Origin: a virus
Reading direction: 5' to 3' (one strand)
DNA: 23,553 bases
IMG/VR virus record: IMGVR_UViG_3300026263_000018
Location: 1 to 23,553 of that record
A program made the translations under genes and the position numbers. The first letter of the stretch is position 1. Every line of letters begins with the position of its first letter. This document shows, piece by piece, positions 12,852-22,844 of this stretch. Below the pieces are notes generated by a model. The model was not told the DNA's origin. It worked only from the letters and a program-made list of their open reading frames with translations, and did no database searches.

Positions 12852-13295
12852 CTATATCAAATTAGGATGAAGCAAACCTTTCACTATCAAATATGTTTTC
12901 AGTAAGCGTGTTTTCCACTCTTCACGGGCAAACTTTTGTTCTTGTCTTTTCTTAGGCCGTTGAGCATTCCACATCTTCATTCTCTGGTCAGGTGCATACT
13001 TTTGACAAGTCGCCACCCAATCAACAACCAATGAAGTTATTGCATACGATAGGTCTTGTGTATGAGTTTCTATCGCTTGTATTGATTCTTCAAGAGTATT
13101 CCTAAGACATGATATGCCAATCTGTTCAACAATTTCTTCGCATGAGTCTTTTAGTATTCTCTTTTCAGCCTTCAAAACATCAGCCCATCTTGAAGAAGGC
13201 ATTAATTTACTACACTCTTTTATCATTTCATGAGTAAAATGGCATTCATCTCTAAGTGTTCTGTATATCCGTCGCTCTCTGTTTAATCCTGTCAT
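12852..13295 (-). CDS. Unknown helical, basic protein (147 aa) coupled to DNA polymerase
   Basis: The protein is almost entirely alpha-helical with many Arg/Lys at both ends (LNRERRIYRTLRDE and QRPKKRQEQKFAREEWK). I find no known motif. Its ATG overlaps the polymerase stop as ATGA, so the two are translationally coupled. A nucleic-acid-binding replication accessory is plausible from charge and position. Confidence 0.75.
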   Translation of the reverse strand: MTGLNRERRIYRTLRDECHFTHEMIKECSKLMPSSRWADVLKAEKRILKDSCEEIVEQIGISCLRNTLEESIQAIETHTQDLSYAITSLVVDWVATCQKYAPDQRMKMWNAQRPKKRQEQKFAREEWKTRLLKTYLIVKGLLHPNLI

Positions 13296-15907
13296 TCAAA
13301 CCATTCCCCCATAGATGATACACCAACACCGGACATACACCGTTGCCAATTAGTGCCTAATGCACTTAATATGGCTAAGAATGAATTACTATCAGCAAAC
13401 ATAGTCTGTATTGACATATCCCTATCAATAACTACATTGTAGTCATCTGGAGAGTCGCCCCATTCAATTGCTATCCTTCTATTGGTTGGTAATGGTTTAT
13501 CACTGGATTTGGCGAAGTAAATACATGGCTTATCTCCTAAATCAAACTCTGTATCAAGGTTTTCATTACTCCACATTGCCGCATTATAGGCAAATGTGCC
13601 TTGTTTCTTCATGCCATATGGCTGACCAAAGGATATGGCGGGGGTTATGTCAGGGTTTTTCATGTCCTCCACCTGCTTTCTAAGAAGTTTGCCTATTTCA
13701 GTCTTGCCCGCTCCATCTAATATAGCACTAAACATCTCTTGTTGAACTGTTTTTACTACCTGTGGAGTGGAAGAACGGCGCATTTCAACGCCTCTAAAGC
13801 CGTGTTTATCGTTATAATCAAGGTATGCATATCTCTTTTTGACCCCCCATTGGAAGTATCTTTTGTAATATGCATCAGGTTTTATGTTGAAAAATTCATT
13901 TTTATCCACATTTAAACACTCTTTGACAAAATCATCAAAGGAATTATTTAATTCATTACAAAGAATCTCTGCCATATCAATAATATCCCTCTCTGTAAAG
14001 GGTCTAATCTTATTTTCAATCTCATCATGGTTGGATATTGCCACCTTGCATGAGTCGGTGTCCTGATATAGCGTGCTGAACCGGACTTCCATACCCTCAT
14101 GAGATGGGGGCATATAGTCTTTATGGGTATATACTCCTTCTTTACAGAACCATAGAGTTCTTTTGTTGATATAATTCTTGTTCCAGTCATTATGACGGCG
14201 GGCAGTATCGGTAATATCCGACCCAATTTCAGGGTCAGCCAGTCTAAATGGTCTGTTTTTTGTCTTTTCAGTTCGCCCCGACCCCAAAACACCATACCAA
14301 GAGTTCATGTTTTCTTTCATGACCCTCTGTTGCCTATCTAAAACCATAAGTCGCTTAGGGTCTTTCTCTATTTTCATCTGGTTTTTTAATTCCTGTCTTG
14401 CTGATGCAAGTTCTCTAAGAACGGTTGGCATAATTCCCACCCTGTCTCGACGGTATATTCTCCCACCTTGAGTCTTAGTTATTGGAAATGGATAACCGTT
14501 AGGGTAGTCATCGGGATTAATTTTTGTGTCAGGAGAAAAATTACCTGTGATAATTGCTGATGGATATTCCATTGAGTTATCTAACTCAAATGCATTTCTC
14601 CAAATTCCAATAGGTGCATCCATAACAAAACCCCCCTGCTCAATTCCACCTTCGGGCATAGTATCAGCAACCACTTTAGCGGAAGGCATGATAATATCTT
14701 GATTCCATAGCAAATGACCCATCATATCTTCAACCAACATCATATTACTGTGGCTTTTGTGTAGGGTGCTATTGTGATAAGCAGTTTTCATAATATAAAA
14801 CGGTAGTAAATCTAAGACCTCCATACATCGTGCCGCCACTACATTATCCCATGCGTTATAGACGGCTAACATCATTGGGTCTTTGACCATTAAATCTGTA
14901 ATTCTGTTTCTCGGAACTTTACCATAGCCAAGTGTTGTTGTCGCCATCCAAGATAAAGAAGCCGCTCCGGTTGTAGTCGCAGTTCCTTGAACTTGTTCAG
15001 CGTATGCAATTTTAGTATCAAACTGTGGTAGTTTCTTAAGATAAGTTAAACTCGGAACTTTCATTCCCTCTTGTTTTAGAATCTTAGCCCTGTTATACAT
15101 ATATGGTATATCGTAGCCTTTGATATTTTGACCTGCTATAACATCGGGGTTATAGTGATTCAATCTTGCATGAAACCATCGAAAAAGTTCGGCTTCTCTC
15201 TGGCTTAGGTCAGGATTGTCAAAACTTTTAACAAATATCTTATCGGCCTCAATAGGCTCAATTGGATTAGTATGCTCGACCACTGAATGCAAAGCCGCTT
15301 GTGAAGAAAGAAACCTTCTAACCATACGCTCGGAGGTTGGTGAACAAGTTCCAATTTCATGTATTCCAGTTTTCTCATCGTAAAATGCAATTGACACCAC
15401 TCGCCCTGTTGGGTTCTGTGTATCTAAACAATCCTCTGTTTCAATATCCCAATACCATAAGTCGAGTGAAAATTCACTGGCCGGAACATCTGATTTGTGA
15501 ACATTGACAGGTCTTAGGTTGTTCCAGTCTTTGTCCGTATCTATCTCAATAACTGCTTCCCAACCATATATCCATCTAACCAAAGATGACCATTTTGCAT
15601 CAGCCGAATAATGAGGATAAAAATAATCTCGCACTTCTCTTATGTCAAATGGGGAATTAACATTGACTTCCATCAACGGTTCTCCTTGAATCGTCGTTTT
15701 ATCGCTTGGTTTAACCGACTTGATGCAAGGAAGGTTCGTAAGTGGAGGGTGTAATTTTTCAGGCTTCGTAGTCCAAAATTTAGGCTGACAACCAACAACC
15801 CTAACAACATGACTTGAACCATCCCGTTTCTTAACTCGTAGCACTGTCGCCCAGTCTTTAATGTCGCCTGTTGTTCCAATATCAACAATCAATAATGGTT
15901 CACGCAT
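13292..15907 (-). CDS. polB: Family B DNA polymerase with 3'-5' exonuclease
   Basis: The 871-aa protein has all polymerase B signatures. Exonuclease: YWDIETED (Exo I, about 153), GQNIKGYDIP (Exo II, about 260) and VYNAWDNV (Exo III, YxxxD, about 345). Polymerase: LDNSMEYPSAIIT with NFSPDT (motif A), VMKENMNSWYGVLGSG (motif B), LYQDTDSCK (motif C) and KKRYAYL. All catalytic acids are present, so it should be an active, proofreading replicative enzyme. No terminal-protein (TPR) insertion is obvious, which fits RNA- or DNA-primed rather than protein-primed copying and fits the viral clamp loader nearby. The ATG at 15907 lies 26 bases from the TATA-like box at 15928-15937; the GTG at 15928 falls in the promoter and is rejected. 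Confidence 0.95.
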   Translation of the reverse strand: MREPLLIVDIGTTGDIKDWATVLRVKKRDGSSHVVRVVGCQPKFWTTKPEKLHPPLTNLPCIKSVKPSDKTTIQGEPLMEVNVNSPFDIREVRDYFYPHYSADAKWSSLVRWIYGWEAVIEIDTDKDWNNLRPVNVHKSDVPASEFSLDLWYWDIETEDCLDTQNPTGRVVSIAFYDEKTGIHEIGTCSPTSERMVRRFLSSQAALHSVVEHTNPIEPIEADKIFVKSFDNPDLSQREAELFRWFHARLNHYNPDVIAGQNIKGYDIPYMYNRAKILKQEGMKVPSLTYLKKLPQFDTKIAYAEQVQGTATTTGAASLSWMATTTLGYGKVPRNRITDLMVKDPMMLAVYNAWDNVVAARCMEVLDLLPFYIMKTAYHNSTLHKSHSNMMLVEDMMGHLLWNQDIIMPSAKVVADTMPEGGIEQGGFVMDAPIGIWRNAFELDNSMEYPSAIITGNFSPDTKINPDDYPNGYPFPITKTQGGRIYRRDRVGIMPTVLRELASARQELKNQMKIEKDPKRLMVLDRQQRVMKENMNSWYGVLGSGRTEKTKNRPFRLADPEIGSDITDTARRHNDWNKNYINKRTLWFCKEGVYTHKDYMPPSHEGMEVRFSTLYQDTDSCKVAISNHDEIENKIRPFTERDIIDMAEILCNELNNSFDDFVKECLNVDKNEFFNIKPDAYYKRYFQWGVKKRYAYLDYNDKHGFRGVEMRRSSTPQVVKTVQQEMFSAILDGAGKTEIGKLLRKQVEDMKNPDITPAISFGQPYGMKKQGTFAYNAAMWSNENLDTEFDLGDKPCIYFAKSSDKPLPTNRRIAIEWGDSPDDYNVVIDRDMSIQTMFADSNSFLAILSALGTNWQRCMSGVGVSSMGEWFE

Positions 15908-15927
15908 GGTAGTCCATCCTATACCCA

Positions 15928-15937
15928 CCTATTTATT
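15928..15937 (-). promoter_or_regulatory. Promoter of DNA polymerase
   Basis: AATAAATAGG on the minus strand, 26 bases before the ATG at 15907; a weaker TATA variant than its neighbours. Confidence 0.5.
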
Positions 15938-20081: not shown

Positions 20082-20186
20082 ATGCTGAAAAAAACATTAA
20101 AAATTATCTTACTTTCAAAACATAGGGGGGGCTATGTCAATTTTAAAAAAAGCCGCTTTAAATCAGATTTTTGGCCTCGTTTCTGA
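20082..20186 (+). CDS. Possible plus-strand microprotein (34 aa)
   Basis: A basic frame starting MLKKTLKIILLSKHRGG and ending SDFWPRF. TATATAG at 20034-20040 is about 45 bases upstream, and GGAAG lies in the leader but too far for a Shine-Dalgarno. It spans the G-run hairpin and a later stem, so it may simply be chance coding in a structured region. Confidence 0.2.
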   Translation: MLKKTLKIILLSKHRGGYVNFKKSRFKSDFWPRF

Positions 20187-20235: not shown

Positions 20236-20991
20236 TTAATTATAGCGTGCCATGACTGTATTGATTGCAGTTTGGAAGCCCTCATACTTGAAGGTCATCA
20301 TATAGTTCAATGAGTATGCGTCTTTTGGCTTCATGTTGTAAAGTTCTTTCAAGATGATGTAGGATAGGCGGTGCGCTTGCTTTTCATGGCGCATTGTATA
20401 ATATCCGGCGGTGGTGGTGGCCTTCCTTGATGTTTCGCCGTAGCCAGTAGTAAAGGTGCATCCTTCGGCGGTGTAGGCATTGAAGCACGCTTCATACGCT
20501 CTATAATTTAGGGTCGTCATGTTGTTTAGGTTGTAATGATGTAGGATTTTTTGGAAGGTGCGTGTTTGTTCCGATGTTGAATAATATGCTCCTACTTTGC
20601 CTTGTATGTAATGAATCATCTCATGAATTAAAATTATTGTCCACTCGGCCTCGTTGTCTTGTGGGGAGTGTGTGCCAGTTTGTAGGTTAATGTCAATAAG
20701 TGTGTTCTCATCGTGGCGAGTCTCGGATAGAAGAGTTAATACTTGACCTCTTGAGCCGAGTTTGCGCCCTGTTTCGTGTAGTTTTTGTTGAATGAATCCT
20801 TGTGTTCGACCTGCACCACTTCGGCGCAATTGCACGGTTATGGTGTCGTTTGAATAGTCAATTTCAGGAGTAAAGATGTTTAAAACTTCACTGATTCTTT
20901 GAGATATAACATTTTTTAGTTCGGGGCTTCCGACTCTCTTTGGAAAGACGATTTGTGGCGGGTTCGGGTGGCTCATTAATTGGCGGGTCAT
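20236..20991 (-). CDS. HExxH zinc metalloprotease (zincin-like)
   Basis: The 251-aa protein contains TIILIHEMIHYIQG (His123, Glu124, His127), a classic zincin active-site helix, preceded by an extended strand (NTLIDINLQ). A later helix with NYRAYEACFNAY may supply the third zinc ligand (Glu). No signal peptide or membrane segment is visible, so it should act inside the cell. The start at 20991 (MTRQLMSH) sits 27 bases from the box start at 21018, the same spacing and start codons as neighbouring genes; the longer start at 21045 lies upstream of that promoter. Target unknown: host protein cleavage or virion maturation are options. Confidence 0.75.
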   Translation of the reverse strand: MTRQLMSHPNPPQIVFPKRVGSPELKNVISQRISEVLNIFTPEIDYSNDTITVQLRRSGAGRTQGFIQQKLHETGRKLGSRGQVLTLLSETRHDENTLIDINLQTGTHSPQDNEAEWTIILIHEMIHYIQGKVGAYYSTSEQTRTFQKILHHYNLNNMTTLNYRAYEACFNAYTAEGCTFTTGYGETSRKATTTAGYYTMRHEKQAHRLSYIILKELYNMKPKDAYSLNYMMTFKYEGFQTAINTVMARYN

Positions 20992-21049: not shown

Positions 21050-21180
21050 ACTATATACTGTCAGTGTCACCCTTCCAGTGGATGCGCTCTAAAAAAAAGC
21101 GGCTCAACCAAAAACTTGCGCTCTGTCTATCGTTTTTCAAAAAATCTGAATTTTTGTTTTTTCAAAAAGTCTGAATTTTT
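21050..21180 (+). repeat. Repeated divergent intergenic element, copy 1
   Basis: Plus-strand TATA (ACTATATACTG, 21050), TTCCAGTGGATG (21073), A8GCGGCTCA (21091), and two AAAAA-TCTGAA-TTTTT type palindromes (21139-21155, 21164-21180). The ATG at 21082 opens a 30-codon frame starting MRSKKKRLNQ and ending at 21174. It sits between the zincin promoter and the stop of the ADP-ribosyltransferase-like gene, so the T-rich palindromes may end transcription from both sides. Confidence 0.6.
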
Positions 21181-21183
21181 GTT

Positions 21184-21726
21184 TCAATCCTCATAATATG
21201 AAGCGGGTCTTTCTTCTTCTTCTTCTCTGTTCCAACGGCTACCCCAAAAAGCCGAAGTTATCCCCAAAGTTTCAAAGATAGGTGCATAATAATTATTTTC
21301 GCTTATTCCCCATGATAAGTCCTCGCCTACATGAAAGCCCATGTTGATGACTTCTTGGTCTGTGTAAGCCCCTATGATGGCCTCTTTTGGTATATCGCCC
21401 ATAACATGAGTATCACCGTTTGCGCCGTAGCCATCTTCCATCCACTCGCCACCCATAGAAGCGAGAATGTTCATATCAACACAAATGTTCATTCCATCAG
21501 TAGCCCATGAAGTCTCAACGCCACCAAATTTAACAAAGGTTGAGCGTGAAACCCACTCGGCAGTATTTGTTGAAGTGCATAACTTGAAACCTGTTCCGCC
21601 CTTCTTGATTTGTTCAAAGGTGTAGCCTTGAGATTGCATGGACAATATACCATTTTGAAGAATGGTTTCAACATTGGCGGAGTCGGTTCGGTGGAAGGCG
21701 ACAGGGTAAGATTCGGGGCGGGTCAT
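21184..21726 (-). CDS. ADP-ribosyltransferase-like protein (tentative)
   Basis: The 180-aa protein begins AFHRTDSANVETILQNGILS, the pattern of ART-superfamily enzymes (an early basic/aromatic residue, then NxxxILxxGI), followed by LCTSTNTAEWVS like the STS strand, and GDIPKEAIIGAYTDQEV like the strand after the catalytic region. The C-terminus is Glu-rich. Viruses use such enzymes to modify host RNA polymerase or other targets, so an early host-takeover role is possible. The catalytic Glu is not certain from sequence alone. The ATG at 21726 is 27 bases from the box start, so it is leaderless. Confidence 0.5.
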   Translation of the reverse strand: MTRPESYPVAFHRTDSANVETILQNGILSMQSQGYTFEQIKKGGTGFKLCTSTNTAEWVSRSTFVKFGGVETSWATDGMNICVDMNILASMGGEWMEDGYGANGDTHVMGDIPKEAIIGAYTDQEVINMGFHVGEDLSWGISENNYYAPIFETLGITSAFWGSRWNREEEEERPASYYED

Positions 21727-21745
21727 ATATGTGCGTAGTAGTGGG

Positions 21746-21756
21746 AGTATATAATA
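21746..21756 (-). promoter_or_regulatory. TATA promoter of the ADP-ribosyltransferase-like gene
   Basis: ATTATATACT, 19-base spacer containing CACTACTACGCA, then ATGACCCGCC. Confidence 0.6.
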
Positions 21757-21784
21757 TGTCGGTTTTTTGTATATATTAGAAAAG

Positions 21785-21905
21785 ACTATATACTGCCAGC
21801 CTTATGTTCAAGTGGATGATGATTAGCCGAGAGGCCGTCGGCCTCGCAGTATAGCGTTTAGCCTAAAATTTCAGGGCTTCGGCTCGCCCCTGATATTTGG
21901 AGGCG
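21785..21905 (+). repeat. Repeated divergent intergenic element, copy 2 (diverged)
   Basis: Plus-strand TATA (ACTATATACTG, 21785), TTCAAGTGGATG (21807), a 12-codon frame MMISREAVGLAV (21816-21854) with a perfect hairpin GAGGCC-GTC-GGCCTC (21831-21845) in it, GCAGTATAGCG shared in part with copy 3, and a second stem TCAGGG/CCCTGA (21871-21893). The A8 block is missing here. Confidence 0.5.
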
Positions 21906-21953
21906 TGGCAGTTTCCCACCCGCCCCCATTGGTCGCCCAAGTGGTCGCCGTGT

Positions 21954-22298
21954 TCACTCTTCGCCGTATTTGTCACGGCTTAGGTTGAACTCTTTTGAGT
22001 CGTCTGTATAGGTTGGAGAGTGGTTCATATCATCTTCGATGGTGTATGAAAATTCTCGCTCATCTTCGGAGTCAATGAAAATTATTCCAGTTTCAAACCT
22101 GCATGGTGTTTTATTAATTTTAAAGCAAGGAGTGCAAATGTTAAGGTCTGCGGAGTATTCATATTTCCAACCTTTAACAGTAGTCTTTGAAGTGTATTGT
22201 TTGACTTCGTGGACATGGGTCATATTCTCAAGGGTTGATTCTCTGTCGCAAAAGTCGCAACAGTATAAGGCATCGGTGTTAATCGCTTGTCGGCTCAT
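21954..22298 (-). CDS. Zinc-finger protein (114 aa)
   Basis: It has CCDFCDRES near residue 13 and ICTPCFKINKTPC near 54, likely one zinc site, in a beta-rich acidic protein (FIDSEDEREFSYTIEDD). The C-terminus is strongly acidic, so binding of proteins or mimicry of nucleic acid is as likely as DNA binding. The ATG at 22298 (MSRQAIN) is leaderless, with TATATA at 22319-22328. Function unknown. Confidence 0.7.
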   Translation of the reverse strand: MSRQAINTDALYCCDFCDRESTLENMTHVHEVKQYTSKTTVKGWKYEYSADLNICTPCFKINKTPCRFETGIIFIDSEDEREFSYTIEDDMNHSPTYTDDSKEFNLSRDKYGEE

Positions 22299-22317
22299 AA
22301 CCTTCCGTAGGCATGAG

Positions 22318-22328
22318 AGTATATAGTA
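22318..22328 (-). promoter_or_regulatory. TATA promoter of the 114-aa zinc-finger gene
   Basis: ACTATATACT, 19-base spacer, then ATGAGCCGAC; same architecture as the two genes to its left. Confidence 0.6.
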
Positions 22329-22374
22329 TTAACTCAATATAGTTTGATGCATCTATAAATCAAATGACCCTAAA

Positions 22375-22502
22375 GTTTATATGCTTATATGATGTAGTTC
22401 CAGTGGATGAGAGAGAAAAAAAAGCGGCTCAGGCTCGCAGTAATGCGTTTTTAACTTCCGCATGTGGCGACGGCTCGCCAATTCGCCAAAAATCTGAATT
22501 TT
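22375..22502 (+). repeat. Repeated divergent intergenic element, copy 3
   Basis: Plus-strand TATA (GTTTATATGCTTA, 22375), TTCCAGTGGATG (22398), A8GCGGCTCA (22416), AAAAATCTGAATTTT (22488-22502). The ATG at 22407 opens a 15-codon frame starting MREKKKRLRLAV. From the A8 block to the palindrome is 72 bases, against 73 in copy 1. Confidence 0.6.
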
Positions 22503-22541: not shown

Positions 22542-22844
22542 TCAAGCCATCTTGATGACTCTATCAACCCTCAAGGCGGTTCGTGTTGGTGGTTGGTTAT
22601 CCCTGCGAAGCATGACGGTTTTAACAACGCCCTTACGCACTATCGCTACTATGTTTTGACCGTTGCTCTTAGAGTCACAGTTTGTCGCTCTGTGAGCGTC
22701 TAATTTGAGGGCATAAACGGCCACATCAATTTGACGGCCTACTACTTCAAGAACTGCCTTCACATTTTGGATGACTTCTCTTTTTTCTTCTTCGCTGACT
22801 CTTATGTTCAATCGGTCTAAGGCGTGGGTGCTGATTCGGCTCAT
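22542..22844 (-). CDS. Small protein with DUF4258/RelE-like pattern (100 aa)
   Basis: ISTHALDRLNIRVSEEEKRE followed by a helix, then QNIVAIVRKGVVKTVMLRR gives the helix-strand-strand plan of DUF4258/BrnT/RelE-like proteins, several of which are toxins or RNA-binding. The active residues are not conserved enough to claim RNase activity. The ATG at 22844 is 26 bases from the TATA box at 22866-22875, so it is leaderless. No antitoxin-like partner overlaps it. Confidence 0.6.
   Translation of the reverse strand: MSRISTHALDRLNIRVSEEEKREVIQNVKAVLEVVGRQIDVAVYALKLDAHRATNCDSKSNGQNIVAIVRKGVVKTVMLRRDNQPPTRTALRVDRVIKMA

What the first reader, a model, noticed from the sequence alone, without database searches (positions are those of the whole stretch)
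21050..22502. A family of tiny divergent transcription units between accessory genes
Copies 1 and 3 share, in order and at near-identical spacing, a plus-strand TATA box, 12-13 bases, TTCCAGTGGATG, 6 bases, A8GCGGCTCA, and 72-73 bases later AAAAATCTGAATTTT. Copy 2 keeps the TATA box, spacer and AAGTGGATG. The ATG is 29-30 bases from the box start, where leaderless genes begin in this genome, and opens frames starting MRSKKKRLN and MREKKKRLR. The second codon changes from CGC to AGA but stays Arg, a small hint of protein selection. Copies 2 and 3 both end LAV. The palindrome would end the transcript. These may be sRNAs or basic micropeptides, or operators (TCCA-G-TGGA dyad) repressing the facing genes. 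I know of no described family like this, but could not search.
Basis: partly seen in the sequence, partly recalled or inferred. Interest (0 to 1): 0.68.

Follow-up and report, generated by a model that had tools for sequence, protein, structure and literature searches.

The report
Orphan promoters firing tiny virus RNAs
Viruses thought to infect abundant ocean archaea carry a repeated promoter that has no protein gene behind it and probably makes very short RNAs facing the neighbouring genes; a sister copy hides inside the virus's DNA-polymerase gene, where its exact DNA letters are preserved, so it likely does something not yet described.

Summary
The three plus-strand units are real and more than chance. 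I found 15 homologous units in four genomes of a magrovirus-like clade (window virus plus three relatives at 67-69% PolB identity); pattern scans of 2.9 million IMG/VR contigs found no others. Anatomy: TATA box; [GC]TTC[AC]AGT|GGA with predicted +1 at GG, 27-28 nt from the TATA; in nine units a mostly variable middle, then C[GT]CAGT-N4-CG[TG]TTT, predicting RNAs of about 46-58 nt. Eleven units oppose both neighbouring genes. Several first-reader points fail: the ATG is absent in 8 of 15 units, so a micropeptide is refuted; the TCCA-G-TGGA dyad is not conserved; A8GCGGCTCA and the palindrome fit terminators of the facing minus-strand genes better. A conserved RNA fold is not supported. The units belong to a wider set of promoter-like elements without a matching gene. 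One lies in sense inside PolB, where it is the most synonymously conserved 10-codon window in two virus clades; its boxes match each clade's own gene promoters (TATATA versus CATTGATA). Best reading: orphan promoters firing tiny non-coding RNAs. Whether they act locally or in trans is unresolved. No transcript has been seen.

The parts
21052..21057 (+). Unit 1 TATA box (in AAAGACTATATACTGTCAG)
   Evidence: first T is 28 nt from predicted +1
21072..21082 (+). Unit 1 initiation core CTTCCAGTGGA; predicted +1 at 21080
   Evidence: core is zero-mismatch in 14 of 15 units and one-mismatch in 8d
21080..21137 (+). Unit 1 predicted non-coding RNA, about 58 nt, ending CTCTGTCTATCGTTTTT
   Evidence: Inferred (start; 3' module); no transcript data
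21787..21792 (+). Unit 2 TATA box
21806..21816 (+). Unit 2 core GTTCAAGTGGA; predicted +1 at 21814
21814..21859 (+). Unit 2 predicted RNA, about 46 nt, ending CGCAGTATAGCGTTT; unit 85-90% identical to unit 8a of G024
   Evidence: inferred
22378..22383 (+). Unit 3 TATA box (TATATG in TTTATATG)
22397..22407 (+). Unit 3 core GTTCCAGTGGA; predicted +1 at 22405
22405..22452 (+). Unit 3 predicted RNA, about 48 nt, ending CGCAGTAATGCGTTTTT
   Evidence: inferred
21091..21106 (-). TGAGCCGCTTTTTTTT on the minus strand: terminator-like, 86 nt past the stop of the minus gene 21184-21726
22416..22431 (-). Same minus-strand terminator-like block, 119 nt past the stop of gene 22542-22844
20145..20156 (-). 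Third copy, GCGGCTTTTTTT, 85 nt past the stop of gene 20236-20991, with no unit beside it
21140..21179 (.). Two AAAA[AG]TCTGAATTTT palindromes, 5-44 nt past the stop of the minus gene at 21184
22488..22502 (.). AAAAATCTGAATTTT palindrome, 40 nt past the stop of the minus gene at 22542
20236..20991 (-). Gene divergent from unit 1: leaderless ORF with HEMIH; only a sub-cutoff Pfam M64 match (E = 0.003)
21184..21726 (-). Gene between units 1 and 2, leaderless, no significant Pfam family
21954..22298 (-). Gene between units 2 and 3, leaderless, no Pfam family
22542..22844 (-). Conserved 100-aa gene facing unit 3; homologues lie beside units in G008, G009 and G024
14095..14136 (-). Sister element inside the PolB coding sequence: GAGTATATACCCATAAAGACTATATGCCCCCATCTCATGAGG
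   Evidence: top synonymous-conservation window of PolB

Best explanation
Each unit is an orphan archaeal-type promoter (purine-rich stretch, TATA box, conserved start region GTTC[AC]AGT|GGA) that fires a very short non-coding RNA. In nine of the 15 units the RNA would be about 46-58 nt and end at a conserved CAGT-N4-CG[TG]TTT module. Most units sit between two genes of one direction and point back at the end of the upstream gene, next to the divergent promoter of the downstream gene. Shown by sequence: the family, its block order, its TATA-to-start spacing, conservation above the flanking genes, loss of the ATG, and a wider class of the same promoter without genes, including one in PolB. Inferred: that transcription happens, where it starts and stops, and that the short RNA (or the act of antisense transcription at cassette borders) regulates or insulates neighbouring virus genes.
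For: 15 units in 4 genomes with the same order and spacing. TATA first T to the first G of GGA is 27-28 nt in all 15, against 27 nt from TATA to ATG in five leaderless window genes. Unit DNA is 83-90% identical between viruses, while the neighbouring 100-aa gene is 59-70% and PolB 66-67% at nucleotide level. All zero-mismatch C[GT]CAGT-N3-5-CG[TG]TTT hits in the genomes scanned are in units, except one inverted copy inside unit 8d that lies 18 nt past the stop of a same-strand gene; a second same-strand copy lies about 55 nt past the stop of gene L347 4020-4280. 11 of 15 units oppose both neighbours. Promoter nature of the class: in distant viruses the PolB copy and a second copy (L159 22462-, L153 19713-) carry CATTGATA, the box also found about 28-31 nt before several genes of those viruses.
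Against: No transcript data. The middle of the RNA varies, covariation does not exceed shuffles and folding z-scores run from -2.7 to +1.2, so no conserved fold is shown. No target complementarity stands out for the window units (the high values for some other units are largely self-matches left unmasked). Six of 15 units lack the full 3' module in the expected place, and four (8c, 8e, 5d, 6c) do not clearly oppose both neighbours.
Confidence: 0.6

Rival explanations
1. Local transcription control: the antisense promoters act in cis at gene-cassette borders, by collision or as insulators; the RNA itself has no function.
For: 11 of 15 units face the 3' end of the upstream gene; facing minus-strand terminator-like blocks lie in the same gaps; the TerL-end and L159 elements are also antisense between same-direction genes.
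Against: The transcribed part is conserved (83-88%) and the 3' module keeps CAGT and CG beyond a plain U-tract; the PolB copy is sense.
Confidence: 0.35
2. DNA site for a virus-encoded regulator or replication protein: tandem boxes 16-17 nt apart form an operator or origin-like element that merely resembles a promoter.
For: Direct-repeat boxes (ATTGATA-N9-ATTGATA; A[GC]TATAT boxes about 17 nt apart) change together between clades and between PolB and other copies; the shared CCnnCA[GT]C[CT] stretch lies between box and start.
Against: The same CATTGATA box is also found about 28-31 nt before some genes, and 27-28 nt spacing to the start core holds in all units: promoter behaviour.
Confidence: 0.2
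3. Mobile promoter cassettes (like PeSL of T4-type phages) that help shuffle accessory genes.
For: Units occur beside different genes in each virus; HGTV-1 of haloarchaea has TATA plus inverted-repeat motifs proposed for shuffling (PMC3950731).
Against: Units point away from the following gene; no conserved stem-loop; no recombination junction was examined.
Confidence: 0.15
4. Leaderless micropeptide genes (ATG or GTG start).
For: ATG in 7 of 15 units; GTG in all 15; GTG-frame ORFs such as MDDD* and MDDDDL* recur.
Against: ATG lost in 8 of 15; the GTG frames run from 4 codons to over 100 with no shared stop; indels shift the frame in 5b.
Confidence: 0.04

Closest known systems
HGTV-1 haloarchaeal myovirus TATA plus inverted-repeat motifs, likened to PeSL cassettes of T4-type phages (PMC3950731; Arbiol 2010 and Sencilo 2013 as cited there)
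   Same: Repeated TATA-bearing intergenic elements in a tailed archaeal virus genome, beside accessory genes
   Different: Those precede ORFs and carry an inverted repeat; these point away from the following gene, have no gene behind them and no conserved stem, and have a sister copy inside PolB
Archaeal antisense/non-coding transcripts (e.g. Halobacterium primary antisense transcriptome, PMC6523106, abstract only)
   Same: Short antisense transcription in archaea is a known kind
   Different: Here it is a multi-copy sequence family with a conserved start core and 3' module in viruses
Racr solitary repeat units (PMC10651486)
   Same: Virus-encoded small non-coding RNA units
   Different: No CRISPR-repeat match at threshold in the units; 3-5 copies per genome
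Archaeal C/D box sRNA (Rfam sR30)
   Same: UGAUGA-like box at the 5' end of some units; sub-threshold hit, 18.7 versus 38 bits
   Different: No D box; the C-like box becomes ACGACGA in units 8b, 8d and 5c

Membership tests
Archaeal TATA promoter | TATA box about 27 nt upstream of the start, as in the genome's own leaderless genes | tested here: met
   27-28 nt in all 15 units; 27 nt to ATG in five genes
Archaeal TATA promoter | Transcript 5' end at the predicted site | not testable with these tools
   No RNA data available
Protein-coding gene promoter | An ORF with a conserved start codon at +1 | tested here: not met
   ATG in 7 of 15 only; no conserved frame or stop
PeSL-type regulatory cassette | Promoter pointing into the following gene | tested here: not met
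   11 of 15 units point away from the gene they start next to and oppose both neighbours
PeSL-type regulatory cassette | Conserved stem-loop | tested here: inconclusive
   Hairpin possible in 7 of 9 full units, but no covariation above shuffles
PeSL-type regulatory cassette | Associated with gene shuffling | tested here: inconclusive
   Units sit beside different genes in each virus; junctions not tested
C/D box sRNA | C box RUGAUGA and D box CUGA | tested here: not met
   Sub-threshold sR30 hit only; no D box; C-like box lost in 8b, 8d, 5c
Racr / solitary CRISPR repeat | Similarity to a CRISPR direct repeat | tested here: inconclusive
   No Rfam match at gathering score; only sub-threshold CRISPR-DR8 at 21181-21218, outside the unit RNAs; host arrays not available
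Magrovirus (virus of Poseidoniales) | Tailed-virus genome with archaeal-type replication genes | tested here: met
   PolB, terminase, portal and AAA+ clamp-loader-like ATPase found
Magrovirus (virus of Poseidoniales) | Poseidoniales host | not tested
   No host link was sought; the name rests on gene content and on the literature found

The most novel reading that the evidence does not exclude
Magroviruses have a dedicated class of gene-less promoters that fire a common program of tiny RNAs from accessory-gene borders, with a sister promoter embedded in PolB just before catalytic motif C and kept there at synonymous sites through a change of promoter box; the RNAs act in trans (for example as a decoy for a host RNA-binding factor or as replication primers).
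Probability: 0.25. Interest if true: 0.82.

Novelty: new variant of a known kind. Interest (0 to 1): 0.6.

Why it matters
[quoted passage not shown] If these promoters work, magroviruses use a conserved layer of non-coding transcription that gene annotation misses, and the PolB-embedded copy gives a single-position test that could be checked in existing ocean metatranscriptomes.

Tried and rejected
Rfam at gathering score: no match; at relaxed E-value only sub-threshold sR30 and CRISPR-DR8. Broad IMG/VR pattern scans with low specificity were not informative. Conserved hairpin: tested, not supported. Antisense targets in the same virus: none stands out for the window units; the high values for 5a, 5c, 5d, 6b and 6c largely come from incomplete masking of their own or sister units. 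TerL-end antisense copies first looked like proven antisense promoters, but they overlap the start of a small membrane-protein-like ORF, so coding constraint cannot be excluded there. L306 (distant relative with the 100-aa gene) has no unit.

Full report
Setting. The window is a 23,553-base virus record with family-B DNA polymerase, a terminase-type ATPase, portal protein and an AAA+ clamp-loader-like ATPase; with its relatives it looks like the magroviruses described for Poseidoniales (papers found). Host assignment was not tested. A near-identical longer contig exists (IMGVR_UViG_3300005430_000003), which contains unit 1 but ends before units 2 and 3.

Observation. The three plus-strand units are present as described in their main blocks, with the corrections listed in the observation check. 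The region has no DNA similarity to annotated phage records.

Family. Reading PolB relatives showed the same block in three other viruses. A model from seven copies recovered diverged members it had not been trained on, and fetching whole records brought the set to 15 units: three in the window, five in G024, four in G008, three in G009. Three pattern scans of the viral collection found no further virus with them. Every unit has a TATA box, then [GC]TTC[AC]AGTGGA (one mismatch in 8d), with 27-28 nt from the first T of the TATA to the first G of GGA. In this virus five leaderless genes have their ATG 27 nt from the same point.

What is not conserved. In eight of the units the ATG is ACG, AGG, AGA, AAC or AAG, so a peptide started by ATG is not the conserved product. 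A GTG is present in all, but its frames end after 4 codons in some copies and run over 100 codons in others. The TCCA-G-TGGA dyad is replaced by TCAAGTGGA in ten copies. A8GCGGCTCA occurs three times in the window within three mismatches, each time 85-119 nt beyond the stop of a minus-strand gene, once with no unit nearby; read on the minus strand it is a G+C stretch followed by T7-8, so it looks like the terminator of the facing gene. The AAAAATCTGAATTTT palindromes also flank minus-strand gene ends.

What is conserved after the start. Nine units align end to end and share C[GT]CAGT-N4-CG[TG]TTT (CTCTGT in w1, CGTTCAG in 6a). Zero-mismatch matches to this module in the genomes scanned are all in units, apart from one inverted copy inside unit 8d that follows the stop codon of a same-strand protein gene by 18 nt. 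A second same-strand copy follows gene L347 4020-4280 by about 55 nt. This supports a transcript-end role. Predicted RNAs are about 46-58 nt. Between viruses, unit DNA is 83-90% identical while the adjacent 100-aa gene is 59-70% and PolB 66-67%. A hairpin can be drawn in several units, but neither covariation nor folding energy supports a common structure.

Placement. Eleven units (w1, w2, w3, 8a, 8b, 8d, 5a, 5b, 5c, 6a, 6b) lie on the strand opposite to their neighbouring genes, beginning next to the divergent promoter of one gene and facing the end of the other. Units 8c, 8e, 5d and 6c are different or unclear.

A wider class. The unit-type promoter AAAGA[CT]TATATA was found at 30 places after removing duplicates (29 distinct, because one is a truncated repeat), almost never followed by a gene start. 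These include further intergenic copies, copies in more distant viruses G010, G020 and G022, copies at the end of the terminase gene, and a copy inside PolB in sense. The PolB copy encodes KDY[IM]PPSHEG about 40 nt before motif C. Across nine PolBs (28 pairs below 85% identity) this is the most synonymously conserved 10-codon window of 868 (0.967 identical codons against 0.469 expected; sd of the excess 0.095). In a second clade (five PolBs, 895 windows) the homologous stretch is again the top region (1.0 against 0.536), although its boxes are ATTGA and CATTGATA instead of TATATA. In that clade CATTGATA also stands about 28-31 nt before several genes, and a copy outside PolB matches the PolB copy genome by genome (L159, L153); the L159 one lies antisense between two same-direction genes, like the units. 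So the element keeps the promoter box of its own clade in both contexts. PolBs of G010, G020 and G022 lack the insert.

Mechanism. The most likely reading is orphan promoters that fire tiny non-coding RNAs. The promoter part rests on spacing and on box tracking; the RNA part rests on conservation of the transcribed region and the 3' module. Whether the RNA acts in trans, or antisense transcription acts in cis, cannot be decided from sequence. No transcript was observed, and all start and end points are predictions.

Known systems. The nearest is the TATA plus inverted-repeat motif of haloarchaeal virus HGTV-1, likened to T4 PeSL cassettes (PMC3950731); the defining orientation of those is not met here. 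C/D box sRNAs and ATG peptide genes fail defining features; solitary CRISPR repeats are not supported by Rfam but host arrays could not be checked. A magrovirus survey has no mention of promoters, intergenic elements or small RNAs. Novelty is limited to what these libraries hold.

Noticed in passing
window 14095-14136 (-), inside PolB 13292-15928: Promoter-like element inside the PolB gene, most synonymously conserved window of the gene in two virus clades with different boxes.
   Followed up: partly
L341 16110-, L347 6764-, L345 2729-: A second class of gene-less promoter sharing TATATACCG[AT]CAGCCCATC, similar to the PolB insert of L154 and L156.
   Followed up: partly
L340 13444+, L346 1200+, L352 14145-, L354 16575-: Unit-type promoter element just after the terminase stop, on the opposite strand, overlapping the start of a small hydrophobic ORF (MGVYSLLLPIL...).
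   Followed up: partly
L357 2655+, 3036+; L358 1659+, 2341+, 3529+; L359 2868-: Distant viruses have similar gene-less promoters with a different start region (ACGGGGTGGACGGC in three of them) and A6-8 runs downstream.
   Followed up: partly
L345 3707+ / 3849-; L347 8524+ / 8673-: Two unit-type promoters face each other about 150 bp apart in two viruses, around a shared hairpin-like stretch.
   Followed up: no
L159, L153, L158, L150: In this clade some genes carry CATTGATA, sometimes doubled 16 nt apart, in place of a standard TATA box.
   Followed up: partly
units 5c, 8b, 8d, 6b and w2-type copies: Short tandem repeats right after the predicted start: (GAT)3, (GAC)3-4, (GGAAC)3.
   Followed up: no
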